DNA of 64,000 nucleotides from Sanghuangporus weigelae. Lineage: Eukaryota > Basidiomycota > Agaricomycetes > Hymenochaetales > Hymenochaetaceae. The position numbers were made by a program, and so were the translations under genes. Under the pieces are notes generated by a model. The model saw nothing but the letters and a program-made list of their open reading frames with translations, did no database searches and was not told where the DNA came from. The stretch is from NCBI GenBank assembly GCA_033182465.1, contig CP137318.1, positions 4,216,001 through 4,280,000 on the forward strand, in the 5' to 3' direction. Positions 14,635 through 51,458 of the stretch are shown here, piece by piece (positions within the stretch are counted from its first letter, which is position 1; every line of letters starts with the position of its first letter).

Positions 14635-14775
14635 TCGACGGCTAGTGGAACCGGAACCGGTTCTGCTGACGGAACTGCACAGCACAAACATCTGGAGCTC
14701 AGCAGTTTGTAGCCGGTGTTCTCAGAGCGCATTGTCGGCTGTGGTAGCTGCCTAGTACGCGATGGCTTGAAAGAA
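14635..14775 (+). pseudogene. 3' remnant of a GPI-type secreted protein gene
   Basis: The plus strand here matches the last 140 bp of the intact gene at 50644-51458, including the stretch TCTGGAGCTCAGCAGTTTG and the codons for the hydrophobic C-terminus. Frame shifts and stops break the reading frame (for example TAG and TGA within the first 30 bases), and no upstream exons are found. It is the mirror-image counterpart of the right-arm gene, decayed in this arm. Confidence 0.75.
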
Positions 14776-14802
14776 ATGGACTTTGGGGTTTCTGCACCAT
14801 CT

Positions 14803-14905
14803 AGGGTTCCGCAGCGTATCGTATATAGCGTATACAATACAGCGTATACGCGTATGCGTATCAGCTCAAGCAACTGAACCATACGCGCGTATGCGTATAT
14901 TTTTG
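14803..14905. repeat. GTATACG-type palindrome cluster A
   Basis: Starting at GGTTCCG, the sequence repeats GCGTATAC, TATACGCG and GCGTATGCG motifs that are self-complementary. The same vocabulary recurs at 15226-15291, 45749-45904 and 46201-46355 and I did not see it elsewhere in the window. Confidence 0.6.
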
Positions 14906-15225
14906 AGGGCTGAAAACGGTAAGAAATTCTCGACTTGAATAAGAGTTTGCTCCCCTTTGTTTCGAAGTGGAACAAACATTACTCTCCGAAATCTTACTTA
15001 CTGTCATGACCTCAGTACCGTCCGTCTTCGGCATGATATTCAGATTCAGGGTGGACTCGCTTATAACGAAAAAAAATATGTAATTTCATACTACCTTATC
15101 TCGTTGTTTTGCTGCACAAATTAATATTGGGTTTGCGTTAGGCGTCCTCAACTCGAGGAACACAATGAAAGTATTTTCTAGGCCCAAATATGTGTGCAAT
15201 GGTCAAAATATTATATTGTTGATAT

Positions 15226-15291
15226 GGTTCCGTATACGCCGTATAATATACGCGCGTATTTTATATGAGCGTATGTGTATAAGCCTGAACC
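15226..15291. repeat. GTATACG-type palindrome cluster B
   Basis: This short cluster begins GGTTCCGTATACGCCGTATA and ends near TAAGCCTGAACC, so its ends (GGTTC...GAACC) are inverted repeats. The inside holds repeated CGTAT/ATACG units. Confidence 0.6.
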
Positions 15292-15926
15292 TGAAAATAT
15301 ACACGATGAACCCTAGCAGCATCCTTGCCCATTGACGACTCGACGTTTGGCACACGACCTGAATAATACTATTGATGGTCTTTAATATTTTTACTTGACC
15401 TCTGCCATATATCTTGTTATTTGACGTGGACACTCCCACAGAAGTACAGTATTTGCTAGATGTCTGAAAGCATGCCCCTTCTCGCCGAAGTGTGTTTGGA
15501 CTACCTATTGAAAGTAACTTTGTTTCATATTTCTGTTGTGCGTCGCTTTTACAAATAGCGAGCTCGCCGTACGATTTTGGACAAGTGAGGCATACAATGG
15601 CGGTGGAAAGACGCACTATCCATCCTCGATTTCTCTGTATACATGTAATAGCATTGGCGAGGATACTGGAGGATACTAAGGGAAATAGTGTAGACTGTGA
15701 AGAGGCTGATCATGTACTGTGAGTTATTTGGATCCTTCCGGTTATGGAATAGCAGGTCAGACGATAGACGGTGAAACCTCAACTGGTAAATCTTGAAGAG
15801 AGTTTTATTTCCTGTTCCTGCACTCGCTCATGATATTTATCAATCAGAATATAATCTTTTCATAATAGTTCTTCATCTGTCGTAGCGTGTGTCCGATCCA
15901 GAAGCATCATCACAGGAAGTGTATGC

Positions 15927-17998
15927 CTAGATTCCAGACTTGATAATATCTGCCGCCTTTTCCGCAACTCCGTATATTGTACTTTGCAGATGGGAGCTCA
16001 TATGAATGGGCAGCACACTCGCATCAGTGACGCGCAAGTTGACCGTATCGTAAACACGGAGCTTTCCATCAACAACTCCACCTAGCTCCCTTCGCATCAT
16101 CGCAGCCGTGCCAATAGGATGGAAAACGGCCGAGAAAGCGTCTTGAATCCAGGCTTTCCAAGAGTCATCGGCACCGCCATGTCCATCCTCTGGAACCGTT
16201 CCTGTCCCCGGTATGGTTTCTCCGGATGAAATATCATTGAAAGCAGAGTTATTCAGTACTCGGCGTGAGAGTCGGGCACCTGCTATTTGTACCACGAGAT
16301 CGAAATCGACGCTAAACCAATTTACGTTCACTTCGGGCTTGGTGAAAATACTGGTGTCTGTAATCGTGACGTTTCCGCGACTGAACGGTGATAAATACCA
16401 CATGTTGATGTCGATATCGCTATTTCGATACAAGATTAAGGTGACCTGAAATATGATCAAAATGGGACTCACCCTGGCGAGCCCATGTCGAAGAACAGTT
16501 CCATTACGGGAGCTTCATAAATTTGATCAGCATGAGTGAATGCACCAAAGACATTGTCTTACCGTCATCATTGACTATCAGTCCTGCCTGGATACCGAAA
16601 ATCGTAGTAAGAGCCTCAGAATTAAGCCCATTGACCACTTGACTCTCAGCCCAGCTCGGGTACATCGCCATAATGTAATCGGCTATGTCATCCGCCGTTA
16701 CGCTTCCATTTGAGCCACCATTCTCGGAGAAGAGCTCATGTAGTGACGGGAACGCGATACAATCAGCGGGTCCTATACCATCTGGATTAAATGAAGGTTG
16801 GACGAAATGTTCGAAATGGTTCTGCGCATGTTCTTGCAAGTTCCTCCCTACGGTCGAGAGGCTGACTTTCACGTCGATCCCTAAAGGTTCCAGGACAGCC
16901 GGATCTCCAATCCCTGAGACTTGAAGGATCTGCGGAGTTCCAATCGCACCAGCAGACACAATGACTTCTCGGCGTGCACTCGCATTGAACGACTCTCCAG
17001 TACTATCTGATTTCTTGAACTCTACCCCAGTAGCTCGGACTGACGGAGCCGAACCCACGAAAAGTACCTTCGTGACCTGGTGATTAACAAGAGTAATCCA
17101 GTTCGTACGCTCACGCTCGACAGGGGAGAGATACGCTGTCGCAGACGAAGATCGAGTGTCATTGTCACTCGGATTGATTGTAAGTGGAGTGAAGCTGACA
17201 CAGTTCGCATCGCCTCCATTCAAATCTTGGCACAATGCGATCCCAGTAATGTTCTGAACGGCGTTTGCAAATGCTGGCTGCTGGGGACCTCCATACATGC
17301 CTTGAGGATATGCAACGTGGACAGGGCCTGAAAATCCATGAAAATCCGGATTATAATTAGCTCCTTTCGCACGCTGAACCTGGTCCGGAGGTGTGAACTT
17401 CTCTGCCTAGAGGAATTTTATTTGAGGACAATGTATTAATCCGTATTATAGGTATTCCGTACCTTCTTCATATAGGAAAATAATGAATCGAAATTCCAAT
17501 TCATATCCGAACCTTCCTCACCCAGGAGTTGTGAGAGTGCATCGTACTGCGCCTTCATCGCCCTAGTCCAGTCTGCACCATTAATGGAACTGGTTCCTCC
17601 GAGAGTCCTTCCACTGGAAGGATAAATCACATAAATATGGAGTCGATTCACTACGAAGAAAACAAGATGACGAACCCATGAATTGTTCCATTCAGATCGG
17701 TAGACCATGCCCAGTCCAGGCTCGTCCCAAAGACGGCACCGAAATTATAGACATCAAAAACATCAGGATTTGTACGGTCGTCGTCCCCGGCTTCGACAAG
17801 AAGCACGGTCTTCGAAGGGTCCTCTGAAAGTCGAGAGGCGATTGTGATTCCAGCGGTACCCCCACCTACGACAATGTAATCAAAGATTTTCCCGTTCGCA
17901 CTATTTGGATCTGTAGTGACACCGGACACGCGTCTGTGTAGACCTGGCGCGGCTGATGCGAGTAGAGGAAGGAGAGGAAGGAGTCCCAGACAACGCAT
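15927..17998 (-). CDS. Secreted GMC oxidoreductase (AA3-type), left copy
   Basis: Five exons (17998-17676, 17613-17463, 17406-16563, 16512-16473, 16419-15927) total 617 codons, giving 616 residues. A signal peptide ([14 protein letters not shown]) precedes the FAD-binding motif [18 protein letters not shown]. The two GMC signatures are present ([12 protein letters not shown] and [17 protein letters not shown]). Near the C-terminus HPIGTAAMM and [18 protein letters not shown] carry the His residues expected for the catalytic pair, so the enzyme should be active as an FAD-dependent alcohol or sugar oxidase of the aryl-alcohol/glucose oxidase group, releasing hydrogen peroxide outside the cell; the substrate cannot be told. 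Several N-glycosylation sequons (NIT, NGT, NGS) support secretion. It follows the dienoyl-CoA reductase on the same strand, 682 bp downstream, and has a twin at 47999-50069. Confidence 0.92.
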
Positions 17999-18680
17999 AA
18001 CTTTTCCTGACGCATCAAGTAGAAGATACTGGCCATACGATTCGTCTTTTATGCAGTTTTATTTCCGGAAAAGGCGCATTTTGAACGAAGTCTTTTGCGA
18101 CTTATAGTAGGCGATAAGGAACCACGGACGCCGTCAATTGAGCCCGATTTTCCAACTCTCATTTCGTTTGTGCTTCGCCAAACGCGTGATCTTTTTAGTT
18201 TACTTCTAGAACCCCTCAGCACGCGCCACGATGACTCTCACAGCATAATCCAGAGGAGACAGAAATAGCGAGCAATGTATTGCCGGCGAACTGACAAGCC
18301 TTCGTTTCATTGAGTCCGACCTTCCATTTTCTCAAACATCCACTTCCCGTACGAAGATCGGGGGCCTGCGGCGAAGCAAAGTGTGATCCAGCAAACATTG
18401 GTCAATCGCTTTTTGAAGTGTAATTCGACATTAGCTTCGGATAGCTCTGCTGGATTTCCCGGATCCAACCAAAGACACTGACGTGGATGATGGATGATGT
18501 TGAAGAAAAGACCCTCGTAACTCGCTCAATACGTGTGGTCACTAACGTGACGTCACGCGATTTCATCTAGCAAACAATTACAGCAAACACGAACGGAAAG
18601 TACCATACAATCGGAAGTATCAGGACAGAAGTTTCAATAGATTTATATTCCTCAGTGCCCATCCACGACTAATTTCAGAA
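17999..18680. other. Intergenic between reductase and GMC gene (GMC promoter)
   Basis: This 682 bp holds the GMC promoter and the 3' end of the reductase gene. It is homologous to 47253-47998 in the right arm, although small gaps are visible. No gene is seen. Confidence 0.5.
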
Positions 18681-19824
18681 TCAAAGTTTCGGCTTGATTA
18701 GTTCCCTGACTGCCGCAGGGTCCAATACACTCAAAGGGTACGGCAATTGAGGGGAGCGAACATGCTCACTTGCACCATCAATAACGAGGACAGCGCCACT
18801 CACAAAGGATGCTGCAGGGCTGAATAAGAAAACGGCCGCGTTTGCGATGTCGCGCTTGTCGCCCAATCGAGCGACGGGAATCCCAGAGGAATGGTCTGCC
18901 GACCAAGATGTAGAACCGACAGAGGATGACGAGCCAACTTTTAGCTGAGCAGAAAGCCGTTCCATGCCTTCCGTGCCACCTATCGGGCCAGGAGCAATGA
19001 CATTTGAACGAATACCGTGCGGACCTTCTTCAACCGCAATGACTTGAGAAAGCGCGTCAACGGCGGCCTTCGCTGCTGATACGTGGGCCTGATATGGAGT
19101 GCCTGAAGTAGTTTGATGAGGTAAGATGCTCGGCGAGCGGGAGCAAGAATCACATACCACGGTAGTGAAGCGTCGCGCTCACATGTATATACGATCCGTG
19201 TGTAGATCGAACGTGTGGAAGTGTAGCTTTCACAGTGTTGTAGGTCCCGAGCTACATTAATACTTCAACGGACGGTTAAGGAGCTATCGACAATAAGATT
19301 CGTACAGTGTCAATCTCAATCACGGTCCTGAACGCATTCTCCGAGAGACCGGAAATGGGAGCGAGGAAATTGCCCGCCGCACCTACGTGCAAATGTAGAT
19401 TCAGCCATTCCGTGATTTCAACGACTACCGAATCTTACATACCACAGATGACAAAATCAATTCTACCGAATGTCGCAATGGTCTTCTCAACCGCCTCTTT
19501 CAGCTGAGCCGGCTTGCGAACATCAGCTGGTGCAGGGATGCAATGACGACCTGTCAGCTTTTGCAGTTCCTGAGAAGCAGTTGCAAGACGCTCCGCGTTT
19601 CTCCCGACTATCACAGCGTCTGCGCCGTGTTTCATCTACACATGAGGATAAATCTAGCAGCATGGATCGGAAAAGAAGAAACTCACGATGACTTCCGTCA
19701 TAGTACGACATATTCCTGAGCCACCACCCGTGCAAAAGAGGACCTTTCCTACAAAAAGATTGGGCTGGAAGACCGTCGTCGAATCTACGGCAGGTGTGCC
19801 CTTGAAGTTGCTGGTCGGGGACAT
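18681..19824 (-). CDS. 2,4-dienoyl-CoA reductase, peroxisomal type (SDR), intact copy
   Basis: Five exons (19824-19687, 19635-19443, 19382-19306, 19251-19158, 19102-18681) give 307 residues. The N-terminus FVGKVLFCTGGGSGICRTM is the SDR cofactor motif (TGGGSGI), as in 2,4-dienoyl-CoA reductases. Later come ADVRKPAQLKEAVEKTIATF, the family's AAGNFLAPI (with N) and a C-terminal half with the GPIGGTEGM motif. The protein ends PKL, a variant of the peroxisomal PTS1 signal. The family reduces 2,4-dienoyl-CoA with NADPH during beta-oxidation of polyunsaturated fatty acids (Sps19 in yeast). The classic SDR Tyr is replaced in this subfamily; here the region reads YQAHVSAAKAAVDAL with the Lys kept. 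It is divergent from the decayed GMC gene and has a broken twin at 46356-47252. Confidence 0.9.
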
Positions 19825-20693
19825 ATTTGCTCGTTTTCCACACAGCTAAGTTATGGACTTATTTTGACGGTGTTTTCGCCTTCTTCAGGAAAACCTGAGT
19901 GATCGATCCGTTTGTTAGTGAGTGAGTGGTAATGTGGAAAGTTGAGGTGAAAGCGGGATCCATGAATGAATGATCAGATCACAGACGCCGGCAAATAAAA
20001 TCATGTGCTTCGAGCTCGTTAAAATTATGTAAACCTCAGGTCTTTCTCACATTATCTAATACTTTGAGCTGGAAGGCTTTTCAAACACATTCTCTTCAAA
20101 TTGTCGGTTCTACATTGACCTCACTCATGCTGTCCGTTGATCGTCTTGCGCAACTCAGACCTTCTTCAAATCCTCTGTGGTCGTACAAGGATATGAGACA
20201 CGGAGATCGAATATGCATTCACGTCGTGACTTCGAAATACGAGTTGTAATTGTAAGTATGAATCGCGGCATTCTCGCCTCCATGAAGGCGCACATGAACC
20301 CGTAATTGTTTCCATCGTCTTGGAGAGCTCTCATTAGAATGTTGGAGAGGCCGGCACGTTGTTAAACCTTGTAGAAACAACCGAACATGTAGATTATCTC
20401 CACGCACTCTCCAGGCTCTTGACTTTCTTATGGGTCACGTTCCAGACAGTACTCCCTCCCCAGCGTGGCGCTCAAAAAACGGTACCGTATTCTTCGACTA
20501 ATATTGGGAGAATGCCTGAGTAAGGCGTACATCGTAATCGCGTTGTCGTCGTTCCACGGCGAATTTTGTGTGGTATACCTGATCTTGTGCCTTCTTAAAC
20601 ATACTTTTTCTTTCGGACACTAAAGTGTATATGAGGTGTAGGTTTTCCTTCATCGCATCTCGTCCTGTCCGTCTTACAGTACCCTCGCAGGAT
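19825..20693. other. Divergent intergenic region, nothing recognised
   Basis: This 870 bp separates the reductase (-) from the decayed GMC gene (+) and presumably holds the reductase promoter. No gene-like frame is visible. In the right arm this interval is replaced by other DNA and palindromic repeats. Confidence 0.4.
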
Positions 20694-21540
20694 GCGGCTA
20701 TGCTAGAAGGAATTTTACTGTCGTTACCACTTCTTGTCTCGATTTCATGAAGAATTCATAAATATGCCTTTGGTGTCACTCCGGACGCCAGTGCAGCGCA
20801 CAATCTGACTTTCGATTACATGATCGTTAGAGGAGGTCAAATGGGAACTACCGTTGCCGCGCGCCTGTTTGAAGATTCTTCTAAGACCGTCTTACTGATC
20901 GAGACTGGCCGAACGAACCCAAATATCACTGACATTTATAACTACGGCAAGCCACTTAGAACGCCTATGGAATGGCAATGTGTCACGGATATCGACAGAG
21001 GTATGAGAGGGTGAGCGCCATATCTTTGAACATCAGTAATGTGCTTACTGATTTCTGTTTTAGTGGAAGGACACTTGACGGAAGTACCATTGGACCAGGA
21101 GGCAATGGGGATAATTCGATGCTTTCTCACGACTTTTCTGAGGAAGATGCAGACGTGGATTGCGATTTCGATTCTCTGCAATCTTGTTTGAAGAAGGTAG
21201 GACACAGTTCAATGCTTCGAGGATGCACCGGCATTGAATTTGTCCTTCATGTTCAGTCGGAAAGCTTGTACCCTTCGGACGACGTTGCGCGTGCTAAAGG
21301 AGCCGACTATGTCCCGAATATCACGACTTTTCAGGACCCACCCATGCTACTTTCTCTAAGAATTGCATGGTCGACCACAACGACTCGCATATGTGAGTGC
21401 CGTGCACAACGTTACTGGGATCGATCTCTGTCCAGGTATCGGTGGTGGCGAAGCGAACTGCGTAGCTTTCACAACTCACTCGGTGTCGGAGGCGTAGGCC
21501 TTCACTTCTGGTGTTTACTATTAACCATGCCTTGAGTGAA
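20694..21540 (+). pseudogene. Decayed second GMC oxidoreductase, left copy
   Basis: The plus strand shows FDYMIVRGGQMGTTVAARLF, LLIETGRTNPNITDIYNYGK, GRTLDGSTIGPGGNGDN and GIDLCPGIGGGEANCVAFTT, all alignable to the intact GMC protein up to about its residue 260, then a stop. The start region has an early in-frame stop (ATGCGGCTATGCTAG at 20694). The FAD motif GGGTAG has become RGGQMG and the GMC signature GGTSSING has become DGSTIGPG, so even a repaired frame would lack cofactor-binding residues. The last 350 residues are absent. It lies in the opposite orientation to the intact GMC gene, and its twin is at 44855-45729. Confidence 0.85.
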
Positions 21541-22517
21541 GTGAGAACTAACGGAAGTATATAGAGATGGCGCTTCTGAGTTCTGACGCCTGCCACACTG
21601 CCATCCACCACCAGCACCGCTACTGTCTTACAGCGTATGAACCATCTTACTTCCAGTGATTGCAAAAGGGGCATGATCATGCAGCATAAACCTTTTCGTT
21701 CGCTTGCACCGTCCCTCAGAGAAGCAGAGAATGGACCGGGTCGACTAAACTTGTGAAGTGACGGTCCTCCGTGCCTATGCAAACTTCTTCGTCTAGACTG
21801 ATTTCTTCCGTTACCTGCGTCATCATTCCGAATGAACAGTATGTGGATTAAGGTTATTATACTGCGAGTCCAAGTCTGAAGGTCAGCTCGTTTATCATTA
21901 GCTGATTCACAGTCTGAGCTGAGAGCGCGATCTTAAGTTTGGAAGATCTTAGGAGCCGTATCCTCTCCTCTCTTCGACTCGCTGGTATTCAAGGATTTTG
22001 TATCCGAGTCTCCGTCGATCTCAATCGTGTATATGTCCGCGAGCAACCTTCGTACTGTGAGGTCAGTACTGGTAAGCATACGTGGAGCTTTTGTCCCGAG
22101 AGAACTGGGAGCTTCTTATGGAAAACCATTATGCGGTAGTTTATTCACTCAATTCTTGTCCCGAATCAATCTATCGGTCCTTAATATCAAACATAGAGTG
22201 TGCTCCAATGAAGACACCATTCCAGCCTGTAGCATGATGAATCTAAAGTATCGAATAATACAAGATTGCCCTCCCTAAAGATCGAAACGAACTGCTAAAG
22301 TAGGACAGGAATAACGTACGAAAGATACAGAACGAAATACGAACTACATACATACGCACACTGCAGCCACGCGCGCAAAAGGATAAGAAAACGAAACAAA
22401 CGAATCCGAGTATAGTACATAAGCAATCTCGGAACGATCGGGACATAACCAAAGTCAAATCAAGAGACCGATCATCCAAATCCACTTCCCGTACTTACAT
22501 AGATATACATACAACGA
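21541..22517. other. Intergenic DNA shared by both arms
   Basis: No gene is recognised. Segments at 21.56-21.79 and 21.94-22.2 kb reappear in reverse complement at 44.6-44.85 and 44.24-44.5 kb. One shared stretch keeps an open frame in both arms (CMIMPLLQSLEVRWF) but has no known family. Confidence 0.45.
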
Positions 22518-24669
22518 TCACTTATGAGCATGTCGCTCATTATGTCCGCCATGTAAGCCTAACCTGCGGAACAGATTCATCCAATGATGTTCGGGGTGGT
22601 GTCCTCCTTCAGAACCTCTCTCATTGCGTTGCTCACCGCCATCTTGGCGTCGCGGTCCACCAGAAGAATCGAAGGATCCGGGGATACGGAGGATTTCGGA
22701 GTCGCCTGAAGGCCGAGGCTCATCCGTTTGGCGTACTTTGCTGATATGGTCTTTCGCGACCTCTGGCTCCGCTTCAGGTGAAGATGAGGAACCGACTTCG
22801 ACATTGTCATGTTTAGGCTCCTCCTTCGACAATGGGACTGCATCCAAGTTGGAGGTAGTAAAATCGCGTTTCGATGAGTCTGCTTCACGAGGAAGGGGCC
22901 AGGGCTGACCGTCTTTATCCCCGTCAGGCGGATGTATTCGAACATTATCATTTTCCTCATTCTTCAAATCGACCGACAGCCTCCTGACAGATCCTCCCGC
23001 CTGCTCATTCAACACATCTACACCGAGGCTCTTCCGACTCTCGGAAGTTCTGGGTAACGGCGTCGACGGCCTCTCAGGTGTCCTCCACCCAGAGCTCGAA
23101 CTTTCACTACGTTCACTGGTATCTGTACTTGCCCTTTCCAGTCGATTCGAACCTGCGCGTTGCAAGCGGCCCATCGCGATAGCGCTGTTGATGGCAGAGC
23201 GCCAGCGAGCTTTCGGGTTGAAGTTCTCCCGCAACCCGATAAGATCGTGTAACTCATCCGGCATTTCCTCAGTTAGCCACTGACCCATTCAATTTGCCAA
23301 ACGTCAGTGATCTATATATGAGGACCGCGTAAAACATTCAAAACGTACGGGATGGCGCAAAGCTTCTGCAGCCGGAAGTCGCTTGACAGGATCTGGATTG
23401 ACAAGTGCCTTGATGAAGTCCTTTGCGAGCGCAGAGACGTTCTTCCAATAACGATCGTGGAATAGAAGCCTGCACTCCTCCGTCTCACGGATGAGCTCTT
23501 GGGGATCATTCGAGCGGAAAGGAGAATAGCCGCATAGCATGACGTAGGTGATAATCCTGGCCTCAGATTAAGCCTCTCTCCTTCTCCTGTATTCAAAATA
23601 AACGAAAATAGTACCGACCCAGTTGACCAAGTGTCCACTTTCTTTGAGTGGCCTGTTTTTGTAAGGACTTCAGGAGCAACGTAACCAAACGACCCTGCGA
23701 CCGAGAAAAGCTGCTCATCCGGTCCGTGTAAGTGTTTGGCACTAATAAAAGTTTGTGAGACAAGGGCATCAGAAGAAAATGCCATACATACATCCCAAAG
23801 TCTACGATCACAATATCGGAATCAGTCGCCTTGGTGCGATAAAGGATGTTCTCCGGTCTTGAATACGCTCATCAATGCCAATTTATCGAACAGATAGCAT
23901 CACCAGTTACTCACTTTAAGTCCCGGTGGACGATATCATGATCGTGCAAGTATTTCACACCACTCAGGATTGATCTGGATATTAAGTTTAGCTTTCGCAC
24001 CAGCTTGAAATACATTCGAGATAAATCACCGTACGACATGTATGGCGTCCGCTTCTGTGAACTTACCCCTATTGGCGATGCGCTCGAAAAGCTCCCCGCC
24101 TGTAGCGAGTTCGAACGATAAGTAATACTTTTGGCGTGACTCGAACCATTCGTAAAACTTTACCTGATATCCCAGGACATCAGTACATGCAGAAGTCATT
24201 CAAACTCAGACACACACAATATTGGGGTGGTCAAGTCCTCTAAGCACGTTCATTTCTGCCCATACAGCCTCCTCGTTGCCCTTGACTTTCTTCTTGGGTA
24301 TCACCTTAAGTGCGACATCTTTGGTAATATCGCTTAATTTGCGAGAAGGCGGCCGACCAGATGATCTGCCGCTGCGCATTGACAGAGATGAGGCGGATGA
24401 GGACCTAGCGCTGCTATCCAAAGGCTTTTCTTCTGCAGCCGCGCCATGGTCTGCGACAAGGACCTGTTGCGGAGGTACGTGCCATGTTGCTCGCTAATAG
24501 CAAGTCTTAGCCCAATATAGCTTAGATTATGGTGTTCTCGACTCACGATGACCTTCCCGAACGTACCATGACCCAAGACTTCGTGAAACTCATAGTTCTT
24601 CTTCTTCGCGAACGACGGTGGCTGAGGCAGAATTGCCGACTCGCCTATGGTATTTCTTAAGCTCTTCAT
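22518..24669 (-). CDS. CaMK1-like Ser/Thr protein kinase
   Basis: A multi-exon minus-strand gene starts at ATG 24667-24669. The Gly-rich loop GHGTFGKVI is followed by a Ser/Arg-rich insert of about 65 residues before the ATP lysine in [20 protein letters not shown]. Then come [20 protein letters not shown], the catalytic loop [31 protein letters not shown] with the activation segment, [15 protein letters not shown], and [20 protein letters not shown]. The subdomain XI arginine is in [19 protein letters not shown]. The region [20 protein letters not shown] is the usual calmodulin-binding/autoregulatory helix. A long Ser/Glu/Pro-rich tail ends HNERHAHK. The family responds to calcium-calmodulin; the target is unknown. 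Only its tail is duplicated in the right arm, and a paralogue begins at the right window edge. Confidence 0.88.
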
Positions 24670-25271
24670 TCAATTCACTTATTGAAGTAGACCCAGAGGG
24701 CGAACTTCATGTACACGTTATTAGCAAATTGTTCAAAACGGTGTGAAATGTGACCGCGTACAGATTTATAAAGCAAGCAATCGAAGGCGATTTGTGTCGG
24801 AGTGGCGGTCAGGAGAAAGCACCGCTGACGGCGGAACGGGAAAGATGCCCGCAGTGACGCGCACTGTAAACTCGCTCACGTGATATTATTTTCGTTCGTT
24901 CAAGTTTGTGCGAGTGCGATCAAACCTCCGAGCTCGTCCCTCTTCTTCCGCCTACTATCCGTCACTCGGACTCATTAATATGCTGACTATTGCTAGATGT
25001 CCAATAGTAACACTGCAGCGCAGCGGAAATAAATCATGTTCCGACGGCTCATGGATTCAATTGCACAAACCTCGGCAGCGAGAACAGGAAGGCCACTTGC
25101 ATGATTGAACGTTGCAAGGCTGGTCGTGTCTACTCTGGATACTACCTGTGAGACGGAAGTGCTAGTCTTCTTCGTCTCTGCGTTAATTAGCCGCTGCGAA
25201 ATATCTATTGGTGCTTCACTGTATTTTGCGAATCGCAAATGTATCGACGCTTGCACGCACGAAACCGATTA
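24670..25271. other. Upstream region of the kinase
   Basis: This should hold the kinase promoter and 5' UTR. No gene-like frame is evident in the remainder. Confidence 0.35.
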
Positions 25272-25497
25272 CACAATGGGCAAAGAAGTATATATATAAT
25301 TGATGATGATAGGTGATCAGAAATGGATTTTGGTAAGCAAAATATCGGTATGCATATCTCCATCTAGGATATATATAAGGGTAGAAACTTATAGTTCATA
25401 CATATTCTTTATATCCTAGATATGATGTTTTGCTTATCAAATTTCATTTCTGCTGATCATTCATCATCATCAATTATATACTTATTTGCCCGTTGTG
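25272..25497. mobile_element. Foldback MITE, 226 bp, TTA target duplication
   Basis: Left end CACAATGGGCAAAGAAGTAT and right end (reverse complement CACAACGGGCAAATAAGTAT) are inverted repeats that continue for about 95 bp on each side, with only a short unique centre near 25370-25405. TTA flanks both ends (25269-25271 and 25498-25500). It has no coding capacity. A 3 bp TTA duplication fits PIF/Harbinger-type non-autonomous elements, though Tc1/mariner-like TA insertion cannot be fully excluded. Confidence 0.8.
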
Positions 25498-37633: not shown

Positions 37634-37676
37634 AAATAAATAAATAAATAAATAAGTAAGTAAGTAAGTAAAATAA
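37634..37676. repeat. (AAAT)n-(AAGT)n microsatellite
   Basis: AAAT units change to AAGT (TAAG) units within one tract of about 43 bp in non-coding DNA. Confidence 0.9.
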
Positions 37677-39602: not shown

Positions 39603-39617
39603 GGGGGGGGGGGGGGG
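39603..39617. repeat. Run of 15 G
   Basis: An uninterrupted G15 homopolymer lies in non-coding DNA. Its length is likely to vary between strains and reads. Confidence 0.95.
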
Positions 39618-42414: not shown

Positions 42415-43033
42415 ATGGTCAAGCACAGAAATCTAGACATTCCAGGAATAGTCGCAATTCGAGCACTTGGTAGTGATGCTGCAAAAGTAGGTATGGGGGA
42501 CTTTCCTACTGCACTAGAAGCACCAAGCCGAGTTGCTCTGGCCTGCCTGCTCTCGGCTATTTCGAAAAAGGATGAGGGCATCTATAACTCATTTCGTGAT
42601 AGCTTCCGGTTTGATGTTCGTCGAGTCTAGTATCAAAGTAGGTTAATCTGATTCTGCTTCTAGCAAGGTATCTGTAACCCTAAAAATAGATGAGGTCAAG
42701 ACTGCGCGAAGTAATAACTCAGTAAGGCTACAGTGCTCACCATTCCGTCGGGTATCGCACAACTGTGCGAGAGCAGAGCCCGGACTGAAACTGGATATCG
42801 CCGTAACTCTTCTTATCGGGTCCCTGTATCGGAGAAACGGGAAAACTGGAATATTGACGAGGCTTGAAGATTTGGAAGGCGACAAGATTCAATCAGCACT
42901 GATGAACTTCCTATCCTCGATAAAGTATGAATGTGTGCACAACTCTATTCACAAGGGTCAAAAGTTGATATACTTCCTGTTTTCGACCAAAATGTGGATG
43001 AACTATCCCGGAGTCAATGCGGAACTCACATAG
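42415..43033 (+). CDS. Putative two-exon gene, 187 residues, no family recognised
   Basis: An open frame from ATG 42415 (MVKHRNLDIPGIVAIRALGS) runs to 42608. A 55 bp intron with GT...TTCTAG borders (42609-42663) joins it in phase to a second open stretch of 122 codons ending at TAG 43031-43033. The joined protein has a normal composition, with segments such as LDIAVTLLIGSLYRRNGKTG and LTRLEDLEGDKIQSALMNFL. The intron size and phase match neighbouring real introns, which is the main support. I recognise no domain, the antisense strand is also partly open, and chance cannot be excluded. It may be a remnant, with more exons upstream or downstream. Confidence 0.3.
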
Positions 43034-43505
43034 TTTAGTTGATGCGATTCGTTCACTGCATGATGGCGCGTGCGAGCGAAAACGTTTACACGACTGTACT
43101 ATTCTTCGGCCGATTCCATACATATGAGATTACACTGCACTCAGAGAAGTTGGTCTGATGAACCTTTACCTTTGACATGGTATCCTGATCTATTTGGTTA
43201 GTTGTCAATCGTCGGCCTATGAACGTTTTGATCATTGAGCGGAATGGTCCACAGAGACAGTTTCGAAGTTCGACAGACAGAGAAGCCTGCCTTCCCTAAC
43301 TGTGAGGTCTGTCCACTGCGTCATTAATGTTGGGCGTTGCGCGGCGGAGCAGACGATAGTTGGAATATGAGATGGGAAAATATCCAAACATGTCCAAACA
43401 TTCACACCGTGGAATATCACACGTGATCCGAGTCGTTCCTCTCGACGAAGACACTTTGTTCTTTTCATGGCTATGAACCTTTCAGAGGCGCAACTTAGCT
43501 GCTGA

Positions 43506-43916
43506 GTGGTAACTAAGAGGCCTACAAAGAGCTTGTTAAGTGATATGAAAATTGAGGAAAATGATAATGTTCAAGCCGATAGGGCTCAGGCTGAAGGCGA
43601 CGCGACCCTCTTGCCTGTGAAGCAAACGCACCGAGACGTGATGTTATTATCTTCACTTGAAGCGGAGCCAGAGGTCGCGAAAGACCATATCAGCGAAGTT
43701 CACCAAATGGATAAGTCGCAGCCTTCAAGCGACTCCGAAATCCTCCATATCCCCGAATCCTTCGATTCTTCCGGTGGATCGCAACGTAAAGATAGCGGTG
43801 AGCATCGTAATGAGAGAGGTTGTGAAGGAAGACATCGCCACGAACACCATTGGATGAATCTGTTCCGCAGGTTAGACTTACATGGCGGACATACTGGGCG
43901 ACATGCTCATAAGTGA
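43506..43916 (+). pseudogene. Kinase C-terminal tail fragment
   Basis: A 136-codon open frame matches the C-terminal tail of the kinase at 22518-24669: [37 protein letters not shown] and [16 protein letters not shown], ending HAHK at the same place. The kinase domain and everything before the tail are missing, so it cannot act as a kinase. It has its own ATG and no internal stop, so a short product is conceivable, but a truncated duplicate is the simpler reading. Confidence 0.8.
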
Positions 43917-44854
43917 TCATTGTATGTACGGAAAGTGGATTTGGATGGCCCGTCTCTTGGGTTGACTTTGGTTATGTCCCGATCGTACCGAGATTACTCA
44001 GGTATCTGTACATGGGTTCGTTGTTTCGCTTTCTTATCCTTCCTCGCGCATGGCCGCGGTGTACGTATGTACGTAGTCCATATTTCGTTCTGTACCATTT
44101 TCGTACGCCACGCCTGTCCTACTTTTAACACTACGCTTCGATTCCCGTATGTCGCATGCAATCTTGTATTATTCAGTACTTTAGATTCATCACGCCACTA
44201 GCTGGAATGGTGTCTTAATTAGAGCACAATCTATGATTCATATTATGGACTGGTAGATCGACTCGGGAATGGAACAATCTATTGCATAACTGTCTTCATC
44301 GGGACAAAAGCTTTGCGTATGGCTCACTAGTACTAACTTCACAGCACGAAGGTTGTTCGCGGACGTATGCATGGCTGAGATCAACGCAGACTCGAATGCG
44401 GACTCCTTGAATACCAGTGATTTGAAGAGAGGAGAAGAGAGGATACAATTCCTGAGATCTTCCAAGCTTAGGATCGCATTCTCAGCTCAGACGTTAATTA
44501 GCTGTTGGCAGGCGAGCTGGCCTGCCGACTCGGACTTGCAGTATGATAATATTAATCCACACACTCACTGATATTAATTAATATTAATGACGGAGGTCAA
44601 TGGGAGAAGCCAGATCTAGACGAAGTTTGCATGGGCACGGAGGACCGTCACTTCACAAGTTTAGTCGACCCGGTCCATTCTCTGCTTCTCTGAGGGACGG
44701 TGCAAGCGAACGAAAAGGTTTATGCTGCATGATCATGCCCCTTTTGCAATCACTGGAAGTAAGATGGTTCATACTCTGTAAGACGGTGGCGGTGTTCGTG
44801 GTGGATGGTAGTGGTGGTAGGTATCAGAAGTACCATTTCTATATACCTCCGTCA
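43917..44854. other. Intergenic DNA shared by both arms
   Basis: This is the mirror of 21.54-22.5 kb. No gene is recognised. An AT palindrome (ATTAATATTAAT, near 44578-44590) is present here but not at the matching place in the left arm. Confidence 0.45.
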
Positions 44855-45729
44855 CTTCTCACTCAAGGCATGATCAATAGTAAACACCAGAAGTGAAGAC
44901 CTACGCCTCCGACACCGAGTGAGTTGTAAAAGCTGCGCAGTTCGCTTCGCCACCACCGATATCTGGACAGAGATTGATCCTAGTAACGTTGCGCACGGCA
45001 CTCACGTATGCGAGTTGCTGTGGTCGACCATACATTTCTTGGAGAAAGTAGCACGGATGAGTCCCGAAAAGCTCTGATATTCGGGGACATTATACATAGT
45101 CGGCTTCTTTAGCGCGTGCAAGGTCGTCCAAAGGATTGAAGCTTTCCGACTGGGTAAGAAAGACGAATTCAGTGCCGGTGCATCCTCGAAGCATTGAACT
45201 GTGTCCTACCTTCTTCAAATAAGATTGCAGAGAATCGAAATTGCAATCCACGTCTGCATCTTCCTCAGAAAAGTCGTGAGAAAGCATCGAATTGTCCCCA
45301 TTGCCTCCTGGTCCAATGGTACTTCCGTCAAGTGTCCTTCCACTAAAACAGAAATCAGTAAGCACATTACTGATGTTCAAAGATATGGCGCTCACCCTCT
45401 CATACCTCTGTCGATATCCGTGACACATTGCCATTCCATAGGCGTTCTAAGTGGCTTGCCGTAGTTATAAATGTCAGTGATATTTGGGTTCGTTCGGTTA
45501 TCGCTGCCAGTCTCGATCATCAGTAAGACGGTCTTAGAAGAATCTTCAAACAGGCGCGCGGCAACGGTAGTTCCCATTTGACCTCCTCTAACGATCATGT
45601 AATCAAAAATCAGATCGTTCGTTGCACTGGCGTCTGAAGTGACATCAAAGGTACCTTTATGAATTCTTCGCCAAGCCGAGACAAGAAGTGGTAAAGAGAG
45701 AGTAAAACTGCTTTTAGCCTGAGAGGCAT
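44855..45729 (-). pseudogene. Decayed second GMC oxidoreductase, right copy
   Basis: Starting at ATG 45727-45729 the frame gives a signal-like MPLRLKAVLLSLPLLVSAW, then TSDASATNDLIFDYMIVRGG and LMIETGSDNRTNPNITDIYN. After an intron it continues with GRTLDGSTIGPGGNG and LSHDFSEEDADVDCNFDSLQ, then stops and changes frame. It stops at the same point as the left copy, so the truncation predates the duplication. It keeps a cleaner 5' end than the left copy. The cofactor motif is altered (RGGQMG), as in the left copy. Confidence 0.85.
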
Positions 45730-45748
45730 AGCTGGATCCTGTGAGTAG

Positions 45749-45904
45749 TGTTCCAACTGTATGCGTATAATGCGTATACGGTTTTCCGTATACGGGATGC
45801 GGCCGTATCGTATAAGAGAAAAATAAGAAAATATACGGCCGTATCCCGTATAGAGTTAGGAAAGAAATGCCGTATACGGCATATGCGCCATATACGGAAC
45901 TCCA
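45749..45904. repeat. GTATACG-type palindrome cluster C
   Basis: The stretch opens with GTTCCAACTGTATGCGTATA, contains ATACGGCCGTAT and CGTATACGG palindromes several times, and ends TATACGGAACTCC. It lies directly upstream of the decayed GMC gene, where similarity to the left arm ends. Confidence 0.65.
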
Positions 45905-46200
45905 CCACGCATGCCCTTTGGAAGGGTATTTGTCCCTGCCTTCCAGATTTTTTTCTTTGGAAATCATAATTTGAGTGTTACCAAGCACGGCAGGACTGGT
46001 GTCAGCGAAAATTTTGGCAATATGCAACCAGGTAAGCGATTATTCGCACACATCCGGTGATCACATATACGCTGATCTGCTCGGACAGCTATGAAAATCA
46101 TCCCTAAGCACTATTATCAGTGAACAGAACCTTCATTGCATCGGGATAGACTTTGAACACTTTGAAAAAATGTTTGTTAGTATGTCCTGATGTGGTAGAG

Positions 46201-46355
46201 TTACGGAACCTCCGTATACGCCGTATTCCCGTATACGGGTGTTCCGTATCCGTATGAGAACCTGACCACCAAATATACGGCCGTATTTCATACGGTCGTA
46301 TCCGTATAAGACTCGAGTTATACGGCCGTATCCGTATACGATATGGTCGGAACCC
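46201..46355. repeat. GTATACG-type palindrome cluster D at a rearrangement edge
   Basis: ACGGAACCTCCGTATACG opens the cluster and CGATATGGTCGGAACCCT closes it, with nested CCGTATACGG and TATACGGCCGTAT units between. Similarity to the reductase gene begins at 46356, right at its right edge, so the cluster sits at the point where the reductase lost its 5' part. Confidence 0.7.
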
Positions 46356-47252
46356 TACTTCTCAGGAATTGCAAAAGCTGACAGGTCGTCATTGCATCCC
46401 TGCACCAGCTGATGTTCGCAAGCCCGCTCAGCTGAAAGAGGCGGTTGAGAAGACCATTGCGACATTCGGTAGAATTGATTTTGTCATCTGTGGTATGTAA
46501 AATTCGGTAGTCGTTGAAAACACGGAATGGCTGAATCTACATTTGCACGTAGGTGCGGCGGGCAATTTCCTCGCTCCCATTTCCGGTCTCTCGGAGAATG
46601 CGTTCAGGACCGTGATTGAGATTGACACTGTGCGCAATCTTATGGTCAATAGCTCCTTAACCGTCCGTTGAAGTATTAATGTAGCTCGGGACCTACAACA
46701 CTGTGAAAGCTACACTTCCACACGTTCGATCTACACACGGATCGTATATACATGTGAGCGCGACGCTTCACTACCGTGGTATGTGATTCTTGCTCCCGCT
46801 CGCCGAGCATCTTACCTCATCAAACTACTTCAGGCACTCCATATCAGGCCCACGTATCAGCAGCGTAGGCCGCCGTTGCGCTTTCTCAGGTCATCGCGGT
46901 TGAAGAAGGTCCGCACGGTATTCGTTCAAATGTCATTGCTCCTGGCCCGATAGGTGGCACGGAAGGCATGGAACGGCTTTCTGCTCAGCTAAAAGTTGGC
47001 TCGTCATCCTCTGTCGGTTCTACATCTTGGTCGGCAGACCATTCCTCTGGGATTCCCGTCGCTCGATTGGGCGACAAGCGCGACATCGCAAATGCGGCCG
47101 TTTTCTTACTCAGCCCAGCAGCATCCTTTGTGAGTGGCTCTGTGATCGTCATTGATGGCGCAAGCGAACATGTTCGCTCGCCTCAACTGCCGTATCCTTT
47201 GAGTGTATTGGACCCTGCGGCAGTCAGAGAACTAATCAAGCCGAGACTTTGA
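46356..47252 (+). pseudogene. Broken 2,4-dienoyl-CoA reductase copy
   Basis: The sequence matches the intact reductase from QELQKLTGRHCIPAPADVRK to the C-terminus (ending PRL, where the intact copy ends PKL). The first exon with the TGGGSGI cofactor motif is missing and replaced by palindromic repeat DNA. An in-frame TAG falls in the conserved HVSAAKAAV segment (Lys codon AAG became TAG near 46865), removing the catalytic-site lysine. Exon borders are otherwise kept. It points the same way as the right GMC gene. Confidence 0.88.
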
Positions 47253-47998
47253 TTCTGAAGTGGGTTGTATATGGATGGGCACTGAGTAATATATACCTGT
47301 TCAAAAATTTGTCCCGATACTTTCGATTGCACGATACGGGAGTCGCGTGACGTCACGTTAGTGACCACACGTATTGAGCGAGTTACGTCTTTTCCTTTTC
47401 TACTACATCATCCATCATCCATGTAGCGTTAGTGTCTTTGGTCGAATCCACGAAATGCGGCAGAGCTACCCGAAGCTAGCGTCGAATTACAACTCAAATA
47501 CGATCGACCAATACTCCTGGATCACACTTTGCTTCGCGGCAGGCCCGCGATCTCGTCCGACAGGAAATGGATATTTGAGAAAATGGAACACACTGTGTGT
47601 ACCTAACTCAAATCCGGATAAAGTCACTGACCTTTACCATGCCTCCTAGGCATCTTGGAAGGTCGGACTGGATGAAACGGAGCTTGCCAGTTCGCCGTCA
47701 ATACATTGCTCGCTATTTTTGTCCATTCTAGATGATTCTGTGCCCGGCACGGAGTGCTGAGGTTTTATGAGCAAGCTCAAAAAGATCACGCGTTTGGCCT
47801 TGAATCATGAACGAAATGAGGCTTGGAAAATCGATTTCAATTATCCGCGTCTCGTGGTTGTTTATCGCCTACTCAAAGCCGCAAAGAACTTCGTTCAAAA
47901 TGAGCCTTTCCGGGAAATAAGACTACATAAAAGGCGAATCGTATGGCACTCATGCTGCAACCATCCCAGTATCTTCTACTTGATGCATCAAGAAAGTT
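47253..47998. other. Intergenic, promoter of the right GMC gene
   Basis: This stretch is homologous to 17999-18680 with several small gaps. It should hold the right GMC promoter. No gene is seen. Confidence 0.5.
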
Positions 47999-50069
47999 AT
48001 GCGTTATCTGAGACTCCTGCCCCTCCTTCCTCTACTCGCATCAGCTGCACCAGGTCTACACAGACGCGTGTCCGGTGTCACTACAGATCCAAATAGTGCG
48101 AACGGGAAAATCTTTGATTACATTGTCGTAGGTGGGGGCACCGCAGGAACCACAATCGCCTCACGTCTTTCGGAGGACCCTTCGAAGGCTGTGCTTCTTA
48201 TTGAAGCTGGGGACGACGACCGCGCAAACCCTGATGTTTTTGATATCTACAAATATAGCGCCGCCTTTGGGACGAGCCTGGACTGGGCGTGGTCTACGGA
48301 TCTGGATAGAACAATTCGTGGGTTCGTCACCTTGTTTTCTGCGTAGTGAATCGACTCCGTATTTATGTGACTTATCCTTCCAGTGGAAGGACTCTCGGAG
48401 GAAGCAGTTCCATCAATGGGCTACTTTGGACTAGGGCGATGAAGGCACAGTACGATGCATTCTCACAACTCCTGGGTGAGGAAGATTCGGATATGAATTG
48501 GAATTTCGATTCATTATTTTCCTATATGAAGAAGGTACGGAATACCTATGATACGGATTACTACATCGTCCTCAGATAATGTTCTTCCAGGCAGAGATGT
48601 TCACACCTCCAGATCGGGATCAGCGTGCGAAAGGAGCTAATTATAATCCAGATTATCACGGATTTTCAGGTCCTGTCCACGTTGCATATCCTCAGGGCAT
48701 GTACGGAGGTCCCCAGCAGCTAGCATTCCCTAATGCCGTCCAGAACATTACTGGGATCGCATTGTGCCAAGATTTGAATGGAGGCGATGCCAACTGTGTC
48801 AGCTTCACTCCACATACAATCAATCCGAGTGACAATGACACTCGGTCTTCGTCTGCGACGGCGTATCTCTCCCCTGTCGAGGATGAACGTACGAACTGGA
48901 TTACTCTTGTTAATCACCAGGTAATGAGGGTACTTCTCGTGGGTTCGGCTCCGTCAGTCCGAGCAACTGGGGTAGAATTCAAGAAATCGGACAGTACTGG
49001 AGAGTCGTTCAATGCGAGTGCACACCAAGAAATCATTATCTCTGCTGGTGCGATCGGAACTCCGCAGATCCTTCAAGTCTCAGGGATTGGAGATCCGGTT
49101 GTCTTGGAACCTTTGGGGATCGACGTGAAAGCCAACATTTCGACTGTGGGGAGGAACTTGCAAGAACAAGCGATGAACAATCTCGGACATTCCACTCGAC
49201 CTCAGTTTAGTCCAGATGGTATAGGACCCTCTAATTGTATGGCGCTCCCGTCGCTAAAGGAGCTCTTCTCCGAGAATGGTGGCTCAAATGGGAGTGTAGC
49301 AGTGGATGACATAGCCGATTACATTATGGCGATGTACCCGAGTTGGGCTGAAAGTCAAGTGGTCAACGGGCTTGATTCTGAGGCTCTTACTACGATATTC
49401 GGTATCCAGGCAGGACTGATAGTCAATGATGACGGTAAGACAATCTCTTGGTGCATTCACTCATGCTGATCAAATTTATGAAGCTCCCGTAATGGAACTG
49501 TTCTTCGATATTGGTTTCCTAGAGTGAGTCCCAATTTGATCATATTTCAGGTCGCCTTAACCTTGTGTTGAACTAGAGATATCGGTATCGACATGTGGTA
49601 TTTACTACCATTCAGTCGCGGAAACGTCACGATTACAGATACCAGTATTTTCACCAAGCCCGAAGTGAACGTAAATTGGTTCAGCATCGATTTCGACCTC
49701 GCGGTACAAATAGCAGGTGCCCGACTCTCACGCCGAGTACTGAATAACGCAGCTTTCGATCCTATTTCATCTGGAGAAACCATACCAGGAACAGGAATAG
49801 TGCCAGAGGATGGACATGGTGGTACTGATGATTCTTGGAAAGCTTGGATTCAAGACGTTTTCTCGCCTGTTTCGCATCCTATTGGCACGGCTGCGATGAT
49901 GCGAAGGGAGCTGGGTGGAGTTGTTGATGGAAAGCTCCGTGTTTACGATACGGTTAACTTGCGCGTCGCTGATGCGAGTGTACTGCCCATTCATCTGAGC
50001 GCCCATCTGCAAAGTACAATATACGGAGTTGCGGAAAAGGCGGCAGATATTATCAAGTCTGGGATCTAG
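47999..50069 (+). CDS. Secreted GMC oxidoreductase (AA3-type), right copy
   Basis: Five exons (47999-48321, 48384-48534, 48591-49434, 49484-49523, 49577-50069) have exactly the lengths of the left copy (323, 151, 844, 40 and 493 bp) and give 616 residues without stops. Signal peptide, [44 protein letters not shown] and the final [19 protein letters not shown] are all kept. Differences from the left copy are scattered substitutions, about one residue in nine by eye. They are denser around residues 390-420, where the left copy reads [16 protein letters not shown] and this copy [16 protein letters not shown]; that stretch could affect substrate access. Both copies look functional, unlike the other duplicated genes. 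Confidence 0.92.
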
Positions 50070-50643
50070 GCATACACTTCCTGTGATGATGGTTCTGGAT
50101 TGGACACACGCTACGACAGATGAAGAACGATTATGAAAGGATTATATTCTGATTGATAAGTATCATGAGCGAGTGCAGGAACAGGAAATAAAATTTACCT
50201 TCAAGATTTACCAGAAGCCACGATATACGTAAAGCAGTCGTTTATCGAGCAGCATTTAATCGTCTTCCATCAATCGTCTAGTTGAGGTTTTACCATCTAT
50301 CGTCTGACCTGCTACTATTCCATGACCGGAAGGATCCAAATAATTCATAGTGCATGAACATGCACGCAATTTCAGGATCGACCTTCTCACAATTACTTCT
50401 CTTGGTATCCTTAAGTGTCTTCGCCAATGCTATTATGCGGAACAAATCGAGGACAAATAGTGCACCTTTTCATTGTCATTTTATGCCTGACTTGTCAAAA
50501 ATCGTACGGCAATCTCACGCACAACCATAGTTACTTTATGTGTCAATCCAAACGCACTTCATCAATAGCAATATTCATGTCGGGTGCCAAATGTCAAATC
50601 GTTAATGGGCAAGGGTGGTGCAGAAGGTATAAAGTCCATTTCC
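50070..50643. other. Intergenic between GMC gene and GPI-type gene
   Basis: The two genes converge here. Sequence is shared with 14.78-15.92 kb of the left arm, minus the palindrome clusters. No gene is seen. Confidence 0.45.
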
Positions 50644-51458
50644 TCAAGCCATTGCGTAGGCAGCAACCACGGCCAACAATGCGCTCGTTAGAATACCGAC
50701 TGCAAACTGCTGAGCTCCAGACGTTTGCGCTACTCCATCAGCAGAAACAGTTCCACTACCCGTCGAGCCAGCTCCCGATGCCGTACCGGTTCCCGTGGTC
50801 GACGTCTGAGTCTGAGCGGGGGCAGAGCCAGTCGATGCGATGAGCGTGACCCTGTCAGCCGGAGCCGTGCGCGTTGTGAGGAACGTAGTCGATGTTGAAC
50901 TACCGATTACGGTGCCGCGGGCATACGTGCATACCGCATTGTCACTTTGGATACCGCAGCCAATGGAACGGAACCCATCGTCGTCATCGTCGTCGTCGTC
51001 GTCGCCGCCATCATCATCATCCTCGTCATACGCCGCGACAACTTTAGCTCCAGAGGCGTCTGCCACAAGCGTTGCTGTCGCGAAAAGGTGAGAGTGGTGA
51101 GCTAACCTTGGGTGAATTGGATGCAGAGGAGGACGCTAACCAGTGATAGGCCTGTTGTTGTTGTTGTCGTCGTCGTCGTCCGTCATTGTCAGGATATACG
51201 TTGTCTCTCCCGCGGATCCAGTTCCAATGATTACACCAGACGCGATATGATCATCGCCATTGAAGTCGTCCAAATCATCTGGGCCATCGTCGGGAACAAA
51301 GGGTAGCGTAGCTGTTATTTGTGGCCTAGAAGCTACCTCTGCATAAGTAGAACAAAGATCAGTATACAATCAGGGTCGAGTAAGTAGTAACAGAATGACA
51401 TACTGCCGACGTATACGAGAGCAACGAGTGTTGGGAGGATAGTCATGAAAAGCATCAT
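50644..51458 (-). CDS. Secreted, probably GPI-anchored Asp-rich protein, unknown function
   Basis: Three exons (51458-51404, 51338-51141, 51074-50644) total 228 codons, giving 227 residues. The N-terminus LFMTILPTLVALVYVG is a signal peptide. The body has Asp/Asn runs (DDDDDNNNN at the end of exon 2, and an almost pure Asp stretch of about 17 residues early in exon 3). A Cys-containing segment (SIGCGIQSDNAVCTYARG) follows, then a Ser/Thr/Gly-rich linker and a hydrophobic C-terminus (FAVGILTSALLAVVAAYAMA), the pattern of GPI-anchored fungal cell-wall proteins. A Ser-Gly pair before the hydrophobic end could be the anchor site. The acidic runs could bind cations, which is inference. The first of two adjacent ATGs is used. 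Only a remnant remains in the left arm. Confidence 0.75.

What the first reader, a model, noticed from the sequence alone, without database searches (positions are those of the whole stretch)
14635..50830. Large inverted duplication of a five-gene block around a 20 kb spacer
Gene order, exon structure and intergenic DNA of 14.63-22.99 kb reappear in reverse complement at 43.5-50.83 kb. Arms of 7-8 kb with a 20 kb spacer form a large imperfect palindrome around the HMG-box factor. Such a structure can expand, contract or convert, and could flip its spacer by recombination.
Basis: seen in the sequence. Interest (0 to 1): 0.85.

Follow-up and report, generated by a model that had tools for sequence, protein, structure and literature searches.

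The report
Inverted gene-block duplication around spacer
In what is probably a medicinal bracket fungus, a block of about 8 kb occurs twice in opposite orientation around a 20-kb stretch, most likely the scar of an old small chromosome inversion whose two copies have since copied sequence from each other; this is a known kind of structure.

Summary
Window 14635-~22990 matches ~43515-50770 in reverse complement around a ~20.5-kb spacer carrying an HMG-box gene. The "five genes" are one gene intact in both arms (GMC oxidoreductase, dN/dS 0.30), one intact only on the left (an SDR), a GMC pseudogene, and cut-off ends of two border genes. Each border gene is complete in only one arm: a kinase on the left, a GPI-type protein on the right. 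One inversion with ~8-kb staggered breaks, as described in Drosophila, gives this in one step. Duplication followed by a spacer flip, or by loss of one gene end, remain rivals. Arm divergence is mosaic: three tracts (725, 420, 141 bp) differ by 0-1.3% within a 13% background and cross introns, pseudogene and intergenic DNA, which indicates gene conversion between the arms. No flip is shown: no related strain could be searched, and the orphan kinase tail looks neutral. Wrongly joined haplotypes are unlikely: the assembly statistics match a published monokaryon (Sanghuangporus weigelae), and homology stops inside genes at both borders. New member of a known kind.

The parts
14635..22990 (+). left arm
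43515..50770 (-). right arm (reverse complement of the left)
22991..43514 (.). spacer, ~20.5 kb
14635..14764 (+). decayed 3' remnant of the GPI-type gene in the left arm (indels, in-frame TAG)
14802..15315 (.). 514-bp MITE-like insertion, TIR TAGGGTTC/GAACCCTA, 8-bp flanks alike at 7 of 8; uninterrupted site in the right arm
15927..17998 (-). GMC oxidoreductase, left copy
47999..50069 (+). GMC oxidoreductase, right copy
18681..19824 (-). SDR, complete
46358..47252 (+). SDR, right copy, 5' exons lost
45746..46357 (.). MITE-like repeat (39 other places by my count of the scored list) standing where the left arm has ~1.1 kb with the SDR 5' exons
20773..21800 (+). GMC pseudogene, left (approximate limits)
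44610..45645 (-). GMC pseudogene, right (approximate limits)
22518..24663 (-). CaMK-like protein kinase; 3' part in the left arm, 5' part in the spacer (exon model approximate, start codon not found)
43515..43916 (+). orphan 3' tail of the kinase in the right arm
50644..51446 (-). GPI-type secreted protein gene, complete (label by eye; no Pfam match); its 3' end lies in the right arm
18841..19565 (.). gene-conversion tract (9 mismatches in 722 aligned columns) with 47092-46370
20814..21233 (.). gene-conversion tract (3 in 420) with 45604-45173
21635..21775 (.). gene-conversion tract (0 in 141) with 44774-44634
31214..34126 (-). HMG-box gene in the spacer (open frames 31214-33025 and 33044-34126; HMG box in the second)

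Best explanation
An old small inversion with staggered breaks. The ancestral order, read from the right, was GPI-type gene / GMC / SDR / GMC pseudogene / kinase / HMG spacer. Breaks about 8 kb apart on the two strands at one end, one inside the kinase gene and one inside the GPI-type gene, left the block on both broken ends. The spacer, carrying the kinase's 5' part and one copy of the block, was rejoined in inverted orientation. That one event gives two inverted copies with one border gene complete in each. The arms then diverged (background ~13%), were patched by gene conversion between arms, received different mobile elements, and one SDR was lost. SHOWN: inverted arms, complementary border genes, mosaic identity, arm-specific insertions. 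INFERRED: the staggered-break origin, the order of events, and that crossing over between the arms could still flip the spacer at a low rate.
For: Kinase complete only on the left and GPI-type gene complete only on the right, with homology ending inside both genes. The only two other GPI-type matches found (C1:4320712 and 4323430), the closest kinase paralog (C1:4279471-4281042) and the closest further GMC outside the arms (C1:4292091-4294101) lie to the right, so the right side looks like the block's home. No clear duplication at the second breakpoint, as for O8 and five earlier inversions of D. subobscura (PMC5080602, passages). Precedent of the same scale: D. mojavensis inversion 2h, a 7.1-kb copy and an eroded 2.7-kb copy, and 2q, with a gene copied without its first exon (PMC3355041, passages). 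Conversion: longest mismatch-free stretch 298 aligned columns against at most 97 (all sites) or 80 (non-coding) in 5000 shuffles each; segment rates 0.010 and 0.131.
Against: No outgroup genome could be searched, so the ancestral order is inferred from one genome. The left outer flank is a nest of mobile elements (6690-9165, 9217-14433), so a later deletion of the GPI-type gene's 5' part there is quite possible. The kinase and its closest paralog lie in the same orientation today, which alone would fit the present orientation as the older one, and a more distant kinase match (42-54% aa) lies left of the window at C1:4202187-4203351. The conversion test assumes even mutation, and tract edges depend on one pairwise alignment. 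Not all non-coding DNA outside the tracts is strongly diverged: GMC introns 8.6% (19 of 220), GMC 3' flank 5.6% (8 of 144). Confidence was put at 0.5 in a draft and lowered to 0.45 after the left-hand kinase match was seen on rechecking.
Confidence: 0.45

Rival explanations
1. Duplication plus deletion: the left block is the original with both border genes; a copy reaching from the kinase tail to the whole GPI-type gene was inserted inverted ~20 kb away; later the left GPI-type gene lost its 5' part near the mobile elements.
For: Left arm holds the intact SDR and kinase; mobile elements lie within ~200 bp of the left outer border; same orientation of the kinase and its closest paralog.
Against: Needs two events; no remnant of the GPI-type 5' part found left of the Copia element (best tblastx match in that gene's region E 0.41); the other GPI-type matches are on the right.
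Confidence: 0.27
2. Duplication, then a flip: the right block is the original; a copy with both ends cut was inserted inverted on the left; later a crossover between the arms inverted the spacer and moved the kinase's 5' part to the left arm. The locus could still toggle.
For: Arms demonstrably exchange sequence; a yeast region of similar size toggles this way (PMC9731477, passages).
Against: Needs two events; only one orientation known; orphan kinase tail looks neutral; most of the arm length is ~13% diverged, which should make crossovers rare.
Confidence: 0.22
3. Assembly artefact: two haplotypes or a read chimera joined head to head.
For: No reads were available to check; two spacer-less palindromes occur in 20 randomly chosen 10-kb stretches of the same assembly.
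Against: Arms ~13% diverged in the background; different insertions and gene losses in each arm; homology stops inside genes on both sides with unrelated flanks; statistics match a monokaryon assembled from long reads.
Confidence: 0.03
4. The near-identical tracts reflect strong constraint, not conversion.
For: Part of the first tract is SDR coding sequence.
Against: Tracts include introns (pseudogene intron 0 of 53, SDR introns 5 of 169 mismatches), a pseudogene and intergenic DNA; no Rfam family at gathering threshold in 14000-51500 and no tRNA in the window.
Confidence: 0.05

Closest known systems
Staggered-break inversions with inverted duplications (D. mojavensis 2h and 2q, PMC3355041; D. 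subobscura O4 and O8, PMC5080602; passages read)
   Same: Kilobase-scale non-repetitive DNA duplicated in inverted orientation at both ends of an inverted segment; genes partly duplicated; in 2h one copy eroded by deletions
   Different: Here a fungus, a spacer of only ~20 kb, no non-inverted relative examined, and gene conversion between the copies (the term does not occur in the PMC5080602 text)
Saccharomyces chromosome XIV flip/flop region (PMC9731477, passages read)
   Same: 24-kb region between inverted repeats (4.2 kb) homogenised by gene conversion; similar size and layout
   Different: There the repeats are almost identical and both orientations are known; here only three long tracts are near-identical, the rest ~13% diverged, and one orientation is known
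Ogataea polymorpha flip/flop mating-type switching (PMC5720833, search listing with start of abstract only)
   Same: A 19-kb region that inverts
   Different: Environmentally induced switching of MAT genes; nothing here shows regulation or mating-type function, and an HMG box alone is no such evidence (19 HMG-box matches in the assembly)
Human inversions between inverted repeats (PMC3961182, passages read)
   Same: Inverted repeats around a spacer, with recombination between repeats
   Different: Recurrent inversion is supported by genotypes there; untested here

Membership tests
Inverted segmental duplication | long antiparallel similarity including intergenic DNA | tested here: met
Staggered-break inversion scar | originally single-copy DNA duplicated in inverted orientation on both sides of a segment | tested here: met
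   duplicated and inverted; no further block-scale copy:
Staggered-break inversion scar | the two genes cut by the block's ends are each complete in one, opposite copy | tested here: met
   gene models approximate
Staggered-break inversion scar | non-inverted relative with single block and the other spacer orientation | not testable with these tools
   states that this genome has no relatives in the collection
Flip/flop inversion region | both orientations present within or between strains | not testable with these tools
   one assembly only
Flip/flop inversion region | arms homogenised by gene conversion | tested here: inconclusive
   three long tracts, together about 1.3 kb of ~5.8 kb segmented, are near-identical; the rest is not
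Mating-type switching cassette | mating-type genes in spacer or arms | tested here: inconclusive
   37 ORFs or models given to Pfam showed no homeodomain or pheromone-receptor domain; one HMG-box gene; short ORFs were not scanned

The most novel reading that the evidence does not exclude
A naturally toggling ~20-kb inversion in an Agaricomycete: the arms keep converting each other, crossovers now and then flip the HMG-box/kinase segment, and the gene arrangement (one complete copy of each broken gene whichever way it lies) makes flips harmless.
Probability: 0.15. Interest if true: 0.6.

Novelty: new member of a known kind. Interest (0 to 1): 0.36.

Why it matters
It looks like a readable case of how a small inversion can leave an inverted gene-block duplication in a mushroom genome, with gene conversion still coupling the copies. 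If sibling species show both orientations, it would extend the yeast flip/flop phenomenon to basidiomycetes. One literature search (staggered breaks + inversion + duplicated + breakpoint + fungi, all required) listed no paper; that is weak evidence only, since the library lacks most subscription papers.

Tried and rejected
Haplotype misjoin: rejected as unlikely (see rivals). Constraint as the cause of identical tracts: rejected. Test for flips through selection on the orphan kinase tail: negative, dN/dS 0.87 over 88 ungapped codons; 22 amino-acid changes against 19.6 (sd 2.3) expected neutrally; chance of no stop codon 0.36, so its open frame means little. Search for a duplicated second breakpoint (left outer versus right inner flank): only short matches, best 19 bp with E 0.005. 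Search left of the Copia element for the missing 5' part of the GPI-type gene: three tblastx rows, best E 0.012 in another gene's region, E 0.41 in the GPI-type region. Relative-rate test of the two GMC genes with the third GMC as outgroup: 43 changes left, 31 right, 27 unresolved, chi2 1.9, no difference; that outgroup looks frame-broken and is only 52% identical in its best stretch, so the test is weak. CpG transitions as a mark of repeat-induced mutation: 175 of 572 transitions at CpG-type sites, 572 transitions to 366 transversions, no baseline computed, left open. Rfam (14000-51500, gathering threshold) and tRNA scans (bacterial code): empty. The home-made gene finder was first mis-tuned (fused genes) and then retuned. 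Background rate of inverted repeats: 3 of 20 fetched 10-kb stretches had an inverted self-match of 300 bp or more, but 10-kb pieces cannot show a 20-kb spacer, so this is no matched control. The search with the spacer (24000-43400) listed only 8 short rows at two places and did not even list the window's own copy, so it is poor evidence that the spacer is unique.

Species: inferred from assembly statistics only (13 contigs, longest 4.49 Mb, N50 2.77 Mb by my own sum from the contig lengths, window GC 47.85% from the counts; PMC10803629 gives 13, 4.49, 2.77 and 47.93%, passages read); the total differs, 33.87 versus 33.96 Mb. No ITS or other marker was compared.
Full report
OBSERVATION. Self-comparison of the window shows a strong antiparallel diagonal: 15783-18326 with 50214-47656 (89%), 18322-19580 with 47588-46355 (90%), 20692-22785 with 45729-43649 (84%), and weaker outer pieces down to 14653 and up to 50754 (one search lists 21 inverted pairs). 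The arms run from about 14635 to 22990 and from about 43515 to 50770, with a spacer of about 20.5 kb. A genome-wide DNA search with the left arm found the right arm as its only block-scale match; its other rows are a ~514-bp inserted repeat and short internal GMC matches (only the best candidates are scored). A search with 24000-43400 listed 8 short rows, at two places, all to window ~25.27-25.50 kb; it did not list the window's own copy, so it says little about uniqueness.

WHERE IT IS. The window is C1:4216001-4280000 of a 33.87-Mb, 13-contig assembly. The longest contig is 4,491,666 bases and the N50, by my sum of the lengths, is contig 5 with 2,774,212; window GC is 47.85%. PMC10803629 (passages) reports for a monokaryon of Sanghuangporus weigelae 13 contigs, 33.96 Mb, maximum 4.49 Mb, N50 2.77 Mb, GC 47.93% and k-mer heterozygosity 0.58%. 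I take the species as probable, not shown; the totals differ by 0.09 Mb. Taxonomy: Hymenochaetales, Agaricomycetes.

ANATOMY. Gene models come from a small gene finder trained on 20 x 10 kb of the same assembly plus the window and are approximate. GMC oxidoreductase: both copies have 5 exons, with 541 of 616 residues identical; the left copy has both Pfam GMC domains, and pieces of it match solved structure 6xut best. dS 0.217, dN 0.064, ratio 0.30. If one copy had drifted freely over half or all of the differences, the chance of no stop codon would be 0.08 (85 changes) to 0.007 (170 changes). Both therefore look functional. SDR: complete on the left, with the broken right copy as its only close relative in the assembly. 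The right copy loses its 5' exons at a MITE-like repeat, 45746-46357, which stands where the left arm has about 1.1 kb and which has 39 other places by my count of the scored list. GMC pseudogene: present in both arms, opposite in orientation to the GMC gene, so an older, smaller inverted duplication seems to lie inside each arm. Kinase: the left copy has a kinase domain (Pfam E 5e-47, two stretches) and continues into the spacer; the right arm has only the 3' tail. GPI-type gene: modelled complete at 50644-51446; the left arm keeps a decayed 3' remnant with indels and an in-frame TAG. The GPI-type label is by eye; Pfam found nothing.

INSERTIONS. A repeat at 14802-15315 with ends TAGGGTTC/GAACCCTA and 8-bp flanks alike at 7 of 8 positions sits only in the left arm; the right arm shows the uninterrupted site. 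A Copia-type LTR element with identical LTRs and 5-bp flanks CTAGC lies ~200 bp outside the left arm, next to a 2.5-kb repeat at 6690-9165.

MOSAIC IDENTITY. A two-state segmentation of 15783-19580 and 20705-22800 gives a background of 13.1% mismatches and three long low-divergence tracts: 18841-19565 (9 of 722), 20814-21233 (3 of 420) and 21635-21775 (0 of 141). Two short ones inside the GMC gene (2 of 134; 0 of 89) may be chance or constraint. Neighbouring non-coding DNA differs by 14-20% (17999-18680, 20705-20813, 21236-21634, 21790-22517), but GMC introns differ by only 8.6% and the GMC 3' flank by 5.6%. The tracts cross introns (pseudogene intron 0 of 53; SDR introns 5 of 169), pseudogene and intergenic DNA. 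The longest mismatch-free stretch, 298 aligned columns with gaps ignored, was not reached in 5000 shuffles of all sites (maximum 97) or of non-coding sites (maximum 80). The first two tracts flank the place where the right arm lost sequence, so they may be one ~2.4-kb conversion event older than that loss (inference). This is good evidence that the arms exchange sequence, though not that crossovers occur.

HOW IT AROSE. A simple copied-and-inserted block would leave one arm with both border genes complete and the other with both cut. Here the kinase is complete on the left and the GPI-type gene on the right. One staggered-break inversion predicts this split. The two other GPI-type matches, the closest kinase paralog and the closest further GMC all lie to the right, the farthest about 57 kb beyond the right arm, which suggests that the right side is the old home of the block. 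Against this, the kinase and its closest paralog are in the same orientation today, and a more distant kinase match (42-54% aa) lies left of the window at C1:4202187-4203351. In D. mojavensis inversion 2h has a 7.1-kb copy with an eroded 2.7-kb partner, and 2q copied a gene without its first exon (PMC3355041, passages). In D. subobscura O8 and five earlier inversions the duplicate stems from one breakpoint only (PMC5080602, passages); I found no clear duplication at the second breakpoint here. The rivals, duplication plus deletion and duplication plus flip, each need two events and are not excluded; I give the inversion 0.45 (0.5 in the draft, lowered on rechecking because of the left-hand kinase match).

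DOES IT FLIP? The closest parallel is the Saccharomyces 24-kb flip/flop region between 4.2-kb repeats (PMC9731477, passages), whose authors attribute flips to crossovers that accompany conversion (they cite about 4% of events). From the anatomy, a crossover in the SDR tract would still leave one complete SDR, kinase and GPI-type gene, so a flip need not be harmful (inference). But a test that could have favoured frequent switching failed: the orphan kinase tail shows dN/dS 0.87, with 22 amino-acid changes against 19.6 expected neutrally. PMC10803629 states 90 < ANI < 95 between close Sanghuangporus species, against ~87% background identity of the arms; the duplication may therefore predate these species (a comparison of unlike measures) and should be findable in them. 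No related assembly could be searched here.

VERDICT. A real, large inverted duplication, best read as the scar of an old small inversion with gene conversion between its ends; current flipping is possible but unshown. New member of a known kind.

Noticed in passing
window 6690-9165: 2.5-kb repeat with inverted ends (CGCGTGTCGGG / CTGCGTGTCGGG), 100% identical to C5:2755330-2757807 and with diverged relatives elsewhere; it holds an HMG-box-like open frame (model 7707-8322, resemblance by eye), and HMG-box matches at C8:209179 and C6:1051183 fall in or beside its relatives.
   Followed up: partly
window 9217-14433: Copia-type LTR element with identical LTRs and 5-bp flanks CTAGC; four other near full-length copies at 98% in the assembly, so a recent insertion.
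   Followed up: partly
L021:5731-8791 and L029:6104-7183: Palindromes with next to no spacer, arms about 1.5 kb (96%) and 0.5 kb (95%), in stretches picked without regard to content; foldback elements or sequencing hairpins.
   Followed up: partly
window 18516-18560 and 47343-47387: 45 bp identical in both arms within diverged intergenic DNA between GMC and SDR, containing the palindrome CGTGACGTCACG; a possible regulatory site.
   Followed up: no
L044 (C1:4291500-4294700): A further GMC copy, 52% aa identity in its best stretch, with apparent frame breaks: GMC genes at this locus have duplicated several times.
   Followed up: partly
window 24700-31200 and 34200-43500: Long stretches on both sides of the HMG-box gene without convincing gene models; two open frames there (39313-39849 and 40444-41193, minus strand) have no Pfam match.
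   Followed up: no
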